A stretch of DNA of 64,000 bases from Chitinophagales bacterium. GTDB lineage: Bacteria > Bacteroidota > Bacteroidia > Chitinophagales > JADIYW01. The notes beneath the pieces are model-generated. The model did no database searches. It saw only the letters and a list, made by a program, of their open reading frames with translations, and was not told where the DNA came from. Of the stretch, positions 29,140-38,059 are shown in pieces. A program made the translations under genes and the position numbers. The stretch's first letter is position 1. Every line of letters starts with the position of its first letter. The stretch lies in NCBI GenBank assembly GCA_023957245.1, contig JAMLHJ010000013.1:1-64000 (forward strand), written 5' to 3'.

Positions 29140-29712
29140 ATGAAAGTAGGTTTGTTTTTCGGTTCTTTTAATCCAATACATAATGGACATCTCATCATTG
29201 CCAATAAAATGTATGAAGCAGGAGGCTTTGAAGAAGTATGGTTTGTACCTTCTCCTCTCAATCCATTTAAAGAGCAAAAAGATTTATTGCCTTTTGAAAA
29301 TAGATTGAAGATGATTAAAAAAGTGATTAAACATCACCCACATTTGAAAGTAAATCCTATAGAAAATGAACTATCTATACCTTCATATACCATTCATACA
29401 TTAGAATATCTTCAAAAAGAACACGAGAATATTACATTCCATATCATCATGGGAACAGATATTTTAACAGATTTTCATCGATGGAAAGATCATGAAAAAA
29501 TTTTACAACTTACTGAATTACATATTTATAACAGAAATATTGATACAGATAAAAAACTTTTTGAAAGTGGAAAAATTCATCATCACCAACTGCCATTATT
29601 AGATATTTCTTCTACTTCAATAAGAGCGAGCATAAAAGCTGGAAAAAGTGTGATTGGTGAAATTGATTCAAAAGTATATAAACAAATACTTCGCCATCAA
29701 TGGTATTTGTAA
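29140..29712 (+). CDS. nadD: Nicotinate-nucleotide adenylyltransferase
   Basis: The 190-residue protein has the nucleotidyltransferase signature GLFFGSFNPIHNGHLI (HxGH) and the C-terminal DISSTSIRASIKAGKS motif. The conserved VPSPLNPFK segment and its length fit NadD. It makes deamido-NAD from nicotinate mononucleotide and ATP. nadA (quinolinate synthase) lies 2 kb downstream, so two NAD genes flank the candidate replication origin. Confidence 0.93.
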   Translation: MKVGLFFGSFNPIHNGHLIIANKMYEAGGFEEVWFVPSPLNPFKEQKDLLPFENRLKMIKKVIKHHPHLKVNPIENELSIPSYTIHTLEYLQKEHENITFHIIMGTDILTDFHRWKDHEKILQLTELHIYNRNIDTDKKLFESGKIHHHQLPLLDISSTSIRASIKAGKSVIGEIDSKVYKQILRHQWYL

Positions 29713-29822: not shown

Positions 29823-31160
29823 ATGAAAAAAATTATCTTATTACTTATCTCCTTCATTTTTACATATAATTCTTGGTCACAACAATGTATTGTTCAGGGC
29901 TTATACGGAAATGCAAGTAAAGTATATAATAGCGATGGCACAATCAATCCCAATTATTTTATTATAGGTGGTGACAGAGGTGATAATTATGGATTGTCTG
30001 ATGTTAAAGGCAATTTGATAGTACCTCAAGAATATGATCCGTATTTTATCATTAGCAATGGGAAGACAATTTCAAAGAATTTTAATAAAAAGACGATTGA
30101 TTTATGGGATTTGAATACTCAAAAAAAAGTGCAGCTTCCAGGAATAAGTGGAAATGAAACAGTAGGAGATAATGGATTAATTGCAATAGAATTTAGTAAT
30201 GAAAAGTGGGGTTATTGTGATATAACTGGAAAAATTGTATTACCAGCTAAATACAGTTTTGCTGAAGAATTTACCAATGGGCGTGCTTTGGTAACTATGA
30301 ATTATAATGAATATGGCATTATAGATGATAAAGGCAATTGGGTAGTCGAACCAAAAAAAATCTCTTATATCCGCTATGCTCCCAATGTGATACTTTTTCA
30401 AGAAGAAACAGGAGAAAATACAAAATCTGGATTAATGGATATTAATGGAAAAATAGTTATTCCAGAAGGTATCTATGAAAATTTTGAATTCAGAAGTGGT
30501 ATAATTGAAGCAATTAAAGGAGATAAAAAAGGAGATTTATATAACTATTCATTAAAAAAATTGACAAATGAAGATTGTTGGATTCCTGATGGCAATGAAA
30601 TGACTGAAGCAACAGATGGATATATTGTTGCTATGGATAGTAAAGGTTATGAATTTGTTATTGATACAAATGGTAATAAGTATTTACAAAATAAATATGA
30701 GTTTATTCAAATACAATTGAATTACTTCACTGGAAAAGCAACAGGATTATTTACTGTGGAAACAAATCCAGCAGATGGAGATAAGCCTGAAACCTATGCA
30801 GTAGTTAAATTAGATGGTACGGTACTTATAGATGGAAATATAAATGATGTGGTTAATTTAGACGATAAAGTCATTTTTACTGGTGAAAAAATTGATGGTA
30901 GAATATTATTTTCTTTAAGAAAAATCAATGGCGATATTATTAAAAAAGACGTGTGTGATAACATTTTGGAATTTTATAAACAGTATGCATTTGTTACAAA
31001 TGGAAACAAACGAGGTGTATTGAATGTATTAACAGGTGAATGGGTAATCCCCTTGGAATATGCAAAACTCTTAGATGTAAGTGATTGTAGTATCAAGTTC
31101 GCTGATTTTAATGGTAAAGAGGTTGATTTTGACCAAGATTTAAATAAAATTTCTAAATAA
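29823..31160 (+). CDS. Secreted WG-repeat protein
   Basis: The 445-residue protein has a signal peptide (MKKIILLLISFIFTYNSWSQ). Multiple WG-type repeats follow, in the form KWGYCDITGKIVLPAKYSFAEEF and EYGIIDDKGNWVVEPK, spread over most of its length. WG repeats form beta-propeller- or strand-like folds of poorly known role, and many Bacteroidetes carry them. A molecular function cannot be given. It ends with a clear rho-independent terminator at 31192-31230. Confidence 0.82.
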   Translation: MKKIILLLISFIFTYNSWSQQCIVQGLYGNASKVYNSDGTINPNYFIIGGDRGDNYGLSDVKGNLIVPQEYDPYFIISNGKTISKNFNKKTIDLWDLNTQKKVQLPGISGNETVGDNGLIAIEFSNEKWGYCDITGKIVLPAKYSFAEEFTNGRALVTMNYNEYGIIDDKGNWVVEPKKISYIRYAPNVILFQEETGENTKSGLMDINGKIVIPEGIYENFEFRSGIIEAIKGDKKGDLYNYSLKKLTNEDCWIPDGNEMTEATDGYIVAMDSKGYEFVIDTNGNKYLQNKYEFIQIQLNYFTGKATGLFTVETNPADGDKPETYAVVKLDGTVLIDGNINDVVNLDDKVIFTGEKIDGRILFSLRKINGDIIKKDVCDNILEFYKQYAFVTNGNKRGVLNVLTGEWVIPLEYAKLLDVSDCSIKFADFNGKEVDFDQDLNKISK

Positions 31161-31191
31161 ATCAGATTTAAAAACCTATTATAATATTTCT

Positions 31192-31230
31192 AATAGCTGT
31201 GTCTTAATTGATACAGCTATTTTTATTTAG
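31192..31230 (+). terminator. Rho-independent terminator after the WG-repeat gene
   Basis: AATAGCTGT (31192-31200) and ACAGCTATT (31213-31221) form a 9-bp stem with a 12-base loop, followed by TTTATTTAG. It isolates the candidate origin downstream from transcription of the WG gene. Confidence 0.82.
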
Positions 31231-31380
31231 AATATAAATCAACCCCTTCAATTAACAGTTATTAACATTGTAACTATAACTATACATAAGTTATTCAAAA
31301 CGAGTAAACTAATTTTAACATTTGATACTTAGTAAAGTCACTAAAAGTTGGAGTGGAACAAAGTGTGAAACAATAAAAAA

Positions 31381-31389
31381 TGTGGATAA
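31381..31389 (-). promoter_or_regulatory. Perfect DnaA box (TTATCCACA on the minus strand)
   Basis: The plus strand reads TGTGGATAA. It lies centrally between the arms GTGTGAAACAA (31363-31373) and TTGTTTCACAC (31400-31410), which makes a chance match less likely. Confidence 0.65.
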
Positions 31390-31401
31390 GGTCAGTAACT
31401 T

Positions 31402-31440
31402 GTTTCACACACATTAAAATTGCGTTCCACACACATTAAA
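31402..31440 (+). repeat. Two iteron-like direct repeats, 22-base period
   Basis: GTTTCACACACATTAAA (31402-31418) and GTTCCACACACATTAAA (31424-31440) differ at one base and are spaced by about two helical turns, so a bound protein would lie on the same face. They sit just to the right of the perfect DnaA box. Confidence 0.7.
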
Positions 31441-31566
31441 TCAGGCTAATTTTAAACAAAGTCAACATACTATTCACAATAAAATTAATGTTGACAGTAG
31501 GTAAATTTTATGTTAAGATATACAAGCAACAGAGTGTGGACAAGTATAAAAGATACTTGATTTTGT

Positions 31567-31574
31567 TACATTTG
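31567..31574 (+). promoter_or_regulatory. Bacteroidetes -7 element TACATTTG
   Basis: An exact TAnnTTTG about 150 bases upstream of nadA. No good -33 TTG is visible at 17-23 bases upstream. If used, nadA transcription would start inside the candidate origin. Confidence 0.4.
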
Positions 31575-31724
31575 TAATCATCGAAGGATGTGGAAATAGT
31601 AATTGAGAGTTTTAGTAAGTTAAAATCCAAGAAAGTGTATAAAATTTTCTTTCTACAAATCCACAGCTTTAATGATGAGAAATAATAAAATAAAATTTAA
31701 TTACTCTATTATAACTATATTATT

Positions 31725-32717
31725 ATGGAGAAGAAGAATCTCGAAGAATTAGGATATTTGGATATTGCTGTAGATCCTACATTAGATTTGTTTGAAGAAA
31801 TTCAAAAATTGAAAAAAGAGAAAAATGCTATTTTGTTGGCGCATTATTATCAAGATGCAGACATTCAAGATATAGCAGATTATATTGGAGATAGTTTGGG
31901 ATTGGCTCAAAAAGCTGAATCTACAGAAGCAGATATGATTGTTTTTGCTGGTGTTCATTTTATGGCTGAAGTAGCTAAAATTTTGAATCCAAGTAAAAAA
32001 GTAGTGATTCCTGATTTGAAAGCCGGATGTTCATTAGCTGATGCTTGTACAGCTGAAGATTTTATTGCTTTCAAAGCTAAATATCCTGATCATGTTGTTG
32101 TTTCTTATATCAATTGCAGTGCAGAAATTAAAGCTTTGAGTGATTATATCTGTACTTCTAGTAGTGCAGAACATATTGTCAATAGTATTCCAGCTGACAA
32201 AGGGATTATTTTTGCCCCTGACAGGAATTTAGGAGGCTATTTAATCAAGAAACTCGGTCGAGATATGGTTCTATGGGACGGATCATGTATCGTGCATGAA
32301 ATCTTCTCTCTAGATAAAATACTAAAATTAAAAGAGCAAAATCCAGAAGCAAAATTTATTGCTCACCCTGAATGTGAAGCTCAAGTATTAGAACATGCTG
32401 ATTATATTGGTTCTACAACTGCATTATTGAAATATACAATAGAAAATGAAGCTCAATCTTTCATTGTAGCTACTGAAACAGGTATTTTACATAAAATGCA
32501 AGAAAATAGTCCTTTTAAGACTTTTATTCCTGCTCCTCCAAATAATGCTTGTGCTTGTAATGATTGTCCATACATGAAACTCAATACTTTAGAAAAAATT
32601 TATAATGCTATGAAATATGAGCAACCTGAAATTTTAATGGATGAAGAATTGAGATTGAAAGCTAAATTACCTATTGATAGGATGTTGGAAATCTCTGCTA
32701 AAGCTGGGATTAAATAG
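31725..32717 (+). CDS. nadA: Quinolinate synthase
   Basis: The 330-residue protein has the NadA hallmark segments [23 protein letters not shown] (about 35-57), FAGVHFMAE, the cluster-ligand Cys102 in [10 protein letters not shown], Cys188 in DGSCIVHE and the C-terminal Cys group at 276, 278 and 281. Three of these cysteines hold a [4Fe-4S] cluster. The enzyme condenses iminoaspartate with dihydroxyacetone phosphate to quinolinate, the first dedicated product of NAD synthesis. No nadB or nadC lies adjacent. Its 3' end overlaps the convergent scpA gene by eight bases. Confidence 0.95.
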
Positions 32718-37980: not shown

Positions 37981-37996
37981 TGTTTCACGTGGAACT
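37981..37996. promoter_or_regulatory. parS-like centromere site 1
   Basis: TGTTTCACGTGGAACT matches the widely conserved parS 16-mer (TGTTYCACGTGRAACA) at 15 of 16 positions. It begins directly after the PorP/SprF stop codon and lies in a noncoding gap. ParB would nucleate here to position the origin region. Confidence 0.82.
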
Positions 37997-38017
37997 TATA
38001 TTTTGTTCAATATAGAT

Positions 38018-38033
38018 AGTTTCACGTGGAACA
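38018..38033. promoter_or_regulatory. parS-like centromere site 2
   Basis: AGTTTCACGTGGAACA matches the parS consensus at 15 of 16 positions. It lies 37 bases after site 1, centre to centre, and 26 bases before the mnmG start codon. Two copies in the same orientation in a 79-base gap are unlikely by chance. Confidence 0.82.
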
Positions 38034-38059
38034 ATTTATTCTAACATAATTTAAATAAA

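What the first reader, a model, noticed from the sequence alone, without database searches (positions are those of the whole stretch)
31161..31724. Candidate oriC upstream of nadA
A 564-base gap in dense coding DNA holds one perfect DnaA box (31381-31389), one 8/9 box (31535), two 7/9 boxes (31589, 31657) and a TTCCACA core (31425), plus a 44-base tract with 41 A/T. A terminator shields it on the left. It lies about 6.5 kb from a pair of parS sites and next to scpA. Bacteroidetes origins are often not next to dnaA, so absence of dnaA is no objection.
Basis: partly seen in the sequence, partly recalled or inferred. Interest (0 to 1): 0.8.

Follow-up and report, generated by a model that had tools for sequence, protein, structure and literature searches.

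The report
Chromosome replication origin beside nadA
This stretch of non-coding DNA is almost certainly where this Bacteroidota bacterium starts copying its chromosome; it is an ordinary kind of element in a previously unmarked place, next to an NAD-synthesis gene instead of next to dnaA, and relatives across its order share it.

Summary
All stated motifs are present. In the organism's own 99.7-kb contig, the strand-corrected third-codon-position GC skew has one sharp step, exactly at this gap (log-likelihood gain 32.8; 0 of 2000 permutations reach it). The same step lies at nadA in a congener and in five single-contig relatives. The genome's only two exact parS sites are 6.3 kb away. Across 103 nadA upstream regions the most enriched 9-mers are DnaA boxes. 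A search of 296 related genomes for "box, 4 nt, TAATAGTAATA" hit 46 genomes once each; in 30 of the 31 where nadA's position is listed, the hit is about 70-150 bp upstream of nadA. The functional core is about 31250-31724. dnaA is on another contig. A rival three-box cluster (C12) lies in coding DNA with no skew step. One relative (G011) has its skew step elsewhere. Not tested: DnaA binding, unwinding, marker frequency. New member of a known kind; no report of the nadA location was found in the papers searched.

The parts
31250..31724 (.). oriC: conserved non-coding region between the left insertion and nadA
   Evidence: In both congeners nadD ends 468-472 bp upstream of nadA and the whole interval aligns. 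The skew step falls here.
31381..31389 (-). Perfect DnaA box TTATCCACA, centred in an 11-bp inverted repeat GTGTGAAACAA / TTGTTTCACAC (31363-31373 / 31400-31410)
   Evidence: box kept in congener L003/L014.
31402..31440 (+). Two 17-bp direct repeats GTTTCACACACATTAAA / GTTCCACACACATTAAA, 22 bp apart, each with a weak box core
   Evidence: partly kept in L003. Role in DnaA binding is inferred.
31535..31543 (-). DnaA box-like TTGTCCACA (8/9)
   Evidence: reads TTGTCAACA in the congener, so weaker there.
31589..31597 (-). DnaA box-like ATTTCCACA (8/9)
   Evidence: kept in L003, L004 and L013.
31657..31665 (+). Unwinding-proximal DnaA box AAATCCACA, pointing at the A/T-rich tract
   Evidence: Aligned box in every family member examined; fixed 4-nt spacing to the trio motif in 60 related loci.
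31670..31678 (.). Putative DnaA-trio tract TAATGATGA (degenerate form of the order-wide TAATAGTAATA)
   Evidence: Position and spacing conserved. Three NTN triplets from 31669, but 43% of random box-like cores also pass that lax test.
31680..31723 (.). A/T-rich tract (41 of 44 A/T), putative DNA-unwinding element
   Evidence: nearly identical in the congener.
31491..31519 (+). Sigma-70-like promoter TTGACA-17-TAAGAT, possible nadA promoter inside the origin
   Evidence: though promoter hits in the region are at shuffle level; the element is conserved in L003.
31192..31221 (+). Intrinsic terminator of the upstream gene, insulating the origin
31725..32717 (+). nadA (quinolinate synthase), origin-flanking gene
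   Evidence: Pfam PF02445, E 5e-122.
29140..29712 (+). nadD-like gene (cytidylyltransferase fold), direct left neighbour of the origin in sister genomes
   Evidence: Pfam PF01467; ends about 470-545 bp before nadA in congeners and family members.
29823..31160 (+). WG-repeat protein gene inserted between nadD and the origin in this genome only
   Evidence: Pfam PF14903; found in none of the related loci.
37981..38033 (.). Two parS sites (37981-37996 and 38018-38033), the only exact ones in the genome

Best explanation
It is the single bidirectional, DnaA-dependent origin (oriC) of the main chromosome. Proposed action: DnaA loads on the boxes between 31363 and 31597, the box at 31657 directs an oligomer into the adjacent single-strand trio tract, the A/T-rich DNA at 31680-31723 melts, and two helicases are loaded to send forks both ways. 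ParB on the parS pair 6.3 kb away then gathers and segregates the new origins. Shown here: location (skew), motif content, conservation, parS linkage. Inferred from established DnaA/BUS biology: binding, melting, helicase loading, segregation.
For: Own contig: strand-corrected GC3-skew step between the genes flanking the gap, log-likelihood gain 32.8, 0/2000 permutations. Congener G002: best break 372.5 kb, nadA at 371.4-372.4 kb. G070, G094, G125, G223 and G300 (Arachidicoccus ginsenosidivorans chromosome): breaks within a few kb of nadA. The only exact parS sites lie near nadA in the own genome, G002, G011, G070, G177 and G300. TGTGGATAA in 43/103 nadA upstream regions against 0/62 control stretches. 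Box-N4-TAATAGTAATA is the only hit in 46/296 genomes and sits upstream of nadA in 30 of 31 checkable cases.
Against: Only one perfect box, and the trio tract is degenerate in this genus. G011 (same family) has its best skew break at 521 kb although nadA is at 682 kb and parS at 691 kb. The own genome is a 23-contig draft, so a whole-chromosome skew curve was not possible. No binding, unwinding or copy-number data.
Confidence: 0.94

Rival explanations
1. A DnaA-regulated promoter region of nadA (or a DnaA-titration site like datA/DARS), with the true origin elsewhere.
For: DnaA boxes also occur at regulated promoters; a sigma-70-like promoter lies inside the region; nadA starts directly after it.
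Against: A promoter or titration site does not explain the skew switch at this exact gap in the own contig and six relatives, nor exclusive parS proximity.
Confidence: 0.04
2. The origin is elsewhere: the three-perfect-box cluster at C12:143585-143710, or near dnaA on C4.
For: C12 has three perfect TTWTCCACA boxes in 126 bases, denser in perfect boxes than the nadA gap; many bacteria have oriC at dnaA.
Against: The C12 cluster lies inside long open reading frames and shows no skew step (gain 0.3 at the cluster, best 2.9 on the sampled contig). Only one box core was found within 600 bp of the box next to dnaA. dnaA is far from nadA and from the skew switch in all relatives checked.
Confidence: 0.01
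3. A conserved cis-regulatory RNA (riboswitch or leader) for NAD synthesis.
For: Conserved non-coding region before an NAD-biosynthesis gene.
Against: No Rfam match up to E = 1; the enriched words are double-strand DnaA boxes on both strands; skew switch unexplained.
Confidence: 0.01

Closest known systems
Bacterial oriC with a basal unwinding system (BUS), as in Bacillus subtilis and six tested species (PMC8287927)
   Same: DnaA box pointing at a short spacer, then a triplet tract, then A/T-rich DNA, all in a non-coding gap at the skew switch.
   Different: Not at dnaA. In the related loci the tract reads TAATAGTAATA (3'-NAT-5' repeats on the lower strand, first triplet often GAT) at a fixed 4-nt spacing; in this genus it is degenerate (TAATGATGA). 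Unwinding not tested.
Escherichia coli oriC (from memory, not compared here)
   Same: oriC away from dnaA; box R1 followed by a CTAATAAG-like stretch and A/T-rich 13-mers.
   Different: Different flanking genes; parS sites are present here and absent from the E. coli chromosome; IHF, Fis and Dam sites were not examined.
ParABS origin region (B. subtilis, Caulobacter, Pseudomonas)
   Same: parS sites within about 10 kb of oriC.
   Different: The single ParB match is on another contig, C20, not beside the origin.

Membership tests
Bacterial chromosomal oriC | GC-skew sign change at the locus | tested here: met
   Own contig step exactly at the gap; congener and five single-contig relatives. One relative (G011) does not fit.
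Bacterial chromosomal oriC | Cluster of DnaA boxes in non-coding DNA | tested here: met
   8 box cores in 560 bases, maximum of the window; boxes enriched upstream of nadA in 103 loci.
Bacterial chromosomal oriC | A/T-rich unwinding element beside the boxes | tested here: met
   41/44 A/T at 31680, conserved in the congener. Actual melting not tested.
Bacterial chromosomal oriC | Replication starts here in cells | not testable with these tools
   Needs marker frequency or fork mapping.
Basal unwinding system (BUS) | DnaA box followed within 16 bp by at least three 3'-NAN-5' trios (criterion of PMC8287927) | tested here: inconclusive
   Met in form (AAATCCACA, then TTA ATG ATG), but 43% of random box-like cores pass; the order-wide fixed-spacing motif is the real support.
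Basal unwinding system (BUS) | DnaA-dependent strand separation on box plus trio DNA | not testable with these tools
   Biochemical assay needed.
dnaA-linked oriC | Adjacent to dnaA | tested here: not met
   dnaA is on contig C4, and far from nadA in the single-contig relatives.
[quoted passage not shown]
   The only exact parS sites of the genome are at C5:37982 and 38019.

The most novel reading that the evidence does not exclude
Chitinophagales keep oriC locked beside an NAD-biosynthesis gene (nadD-oriC-nadA in this family) because initiation and NAD synthesis are coupled: DnaA bound at the origin controls nadA transcription, or transcription through the unwinding region gates initiation.
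Probability: 0.12. Interest if true: 0.65.

Novelty: new member of a known kind. Interest (0 to 1): 0.4.

Why it matters
It fixes the origin of a draft genome and of much of a poorly studied order where oriC cannot be found by looking for dnaA. A simple searchable signature (box, 4 nt, TAATAGTAATA before nadA) gives a landmark for orienting genomes, for growth-rate estimates from read depth, and for building replicating plasmids. It also offers a conserved candidate unwinding element for testing how Bacteroidota DnaA opens DNA.

Tried and rejected
Raw GC skew in 20-kb samples was too noisy in G002 and G011; third-codon-position skew corrected for gene strand resolved G002 but not G011. Counting 1-mismatch boxes over the window is uninformative. 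The three-box cluster on C12 and the two-box clusters on C1, C21 and C22 were rejected as origins. Other core-rich stretches are dispersed repeat-like DNA. No Rfam family matches. A canonical Bacteroidetes promoter (TTG, 19 nt, TAnnTTTG) was looked for by eye before nadA and not found. The formal BUS test on the window alone is uninformative. Paper searches found no description of a nadA-linked origin; databases such as DoriC could not be queried.

Full report
WHAT WAS CLAIMED.

OBSERVATION. Every element is present at the stated place (gene identities). Box counts over the window are at chance (62 one-mismatch boxes against 54 expected), but the gap itself holds 8 box-core hexamers in 560 bases against a mean of 0.54 and is the densest place in the window. 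This density is not unique in the genome: sampled stretches elsewhere reach 7-8 cores in dispersed repeat-like DNA, and contig C12 has three perfect boxes in 126 bases. Box counts alone would therefore not settle the matter.

SKEW TEST IN THE ORGANISM ITSELF. The window is bases 1-64000 of contig C5 (99,662 bases) of a 3.085-Mb, 23-contig genome. The GC skew at third codon positions of every long ORF on C5 was fitted with a gene-strand term and one step at an unknown position. The best step lies between the genes 29823-31160 and 31725-32717, that is, at this gap, with a log-likelihood gain of 32.8; 2000 permutations of gene order gave at most 12.4. Genes on both strands shift: left of the gap minus-strand genes run about -0.06 to -0.5 and plus-strand genes near zero; right of it plus-strand genes run mostly +0.1 to +0.5 and minus-strand genes are around zero to positive. 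A rival contig (C12) gave a best gain of only 2.9.

SKEW TEST IN RELATIVES. The same fit puts the step at 372.5 kb in congener G002 (nadA 371.4-372.4 kb), 640.6 kb in G070 (nadA 639.1-640.0), 949.2 kb in G094 (948.5-949.5), 1037.9 kb in G125 (1039.3-1040.3), 2239.6 kb in G223 (2242.1-2243.1) and 2222.5 kb in G300, the Arachidicoccus ginsenosidivorans chromosome (nadA near 2217-2218 kb). In G070, sampled all round, raw skew is negative on one side of nadA and positive on the other, with the opposite switch between the 2.10 and 2.35 Mb samples, consistent with a terminus about half a chromosome away. G011, in the same family, is an exception: its best break is at 521 kb with nadA at 682 kb; local skew near nadA is weak, and an inversion or a shifted origin are both possible.

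PARS. The own genome has exactly two perfect parS sites, both in the 79-base gap at 37981-38059, 6.3 kb from the origin; no other exact match exists. In G002, G011, G070, G177 and G300 the only exact parS sites lie about 3-9 kb from nadA, and the reversed-pattern control found none; three other genomes have no exact match. dnaA is nowhere near, and the single ParB match is on C20.

COMPARATIVE ANATOMY. In 103 nadA upstream regions, the most enriched 9-mers are TGTGGATAA (43 regions against 0 of 62 control stretches), TGTGGAAAA, and words from TAATAGTAATA. Annotated examples show DnaA boxes pointing left, then a box pointing right, a GC-rich 4-mer, TAATAGTAATA, and an A/T-rich run before nadA. 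The trio-like motif matches with at most 2 mismatches in 95 of 103 regions; in 60 of these it stands exactly 4 nt after a box-like 9-mer. An unbiased search of 296 whole genomes of the order for TYMACA-N4-TAATAGTAATA hit 46 genomes once each (the reversed control hit four). Of the 31 of these with a listed nadA position, 30 have the hit about 70-150 bp upstream of nadA; G243 is the exception, and 15 could not be checked (compared by hand). In the window the corresponding elements are AAATCCACA (31657-31665), GCTT, TAATGATGAGA, then the 41/44 A/T tract: same box, spacing and position, but a degenerate tract. By the published BUS criterion (at least three 3'-NAN-5' triplets within 16 bp of a box, PMC8287927) it passes, but 43% of random box-like cores in the window also pass, so the formal test is uninformative here and the conserved position is the real support.

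BOUNDARIES. In both congeners a nadD-like gene ends 468-472 bp upstream of nadA, and in other family members about 500-545 bp. In the window the same nadD-like gene is at 29140-29712, and a WG-repeat gene with its terminator has been inserted between it and the origin; that gene is found in none of the related loci. Homology to the congeners begins near 31250. The origin proper is therefore about 31250-31724.

MECHANISM. Shown: location, motif content, conservation, parS linkage. Inferred from known DnaA biology: DnaA fills the boxes, the box at 31657 directs an oligomer onto the neighbouring single-strand tract, the A/T-rich DNA melts, helicases load, and ParB at parS segregates the origins. 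The perfect box is centred in an 11-bp inverted repeat and two direct repeats follow it; their role is unknown.

NOVELTY. A DnaA-type oriC away from dnaA is a known kind of element. The nadA location and the fixed-spacing motif across Chitinophagales were not found in the papers searched, but origin databases could not be queried, so predictions for some complete relatives may already exist there.

Noticed in passing
window 29823-31160: A WG-repeat protein gene with its own terminator sits between nadD and the origin in this genome only; it looks like a recent insertion right at the origin's left edge.
   Followed up: partly
window 31363-31410: The one perfect DnaA box is centred in an 11-bp perfect inverted repeat (GTGTGAAACAA / TTGTTTCACAC), partly kept in the congener.
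   Followed up: no
G000:C12:143585-143710: Three perfect DnaA boxes within 126 bases inside coding DNA; possibly a DnaA titration or regulatory site.
   Followed up: partly
L004/L005 (G001:C5:72917-73896): In the third congener nadA is split into two overlapping frames with internal stops; pseudogene or sequencing error.
   Followed up: no
G011:C13: Skew step at about 521 kb while nadA is at 682 kb and parS at 691 kb; a large inversion or a shifted origin.
   Followed up: partly
G000 whole genome: TTWTCCACA occurs 71 times against 126 for the reversed control pattern, so perfect DnaA boxes seem to be avoided in this genome.
   Followed up: no
G231:C1: A single-contig genome whose coordinate 1 lies about 640 bp upstream of nadA, as if its depositors had rotated it to this origin.
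   Followed up: no
L242:512, L229:3321, L129:7376: Dispersed intergenic repeat-like sequence rich in CTTTGTGGAA / TTCACA words in several places of the own genome, mimicking weak box clusters.
   Followed up: partly
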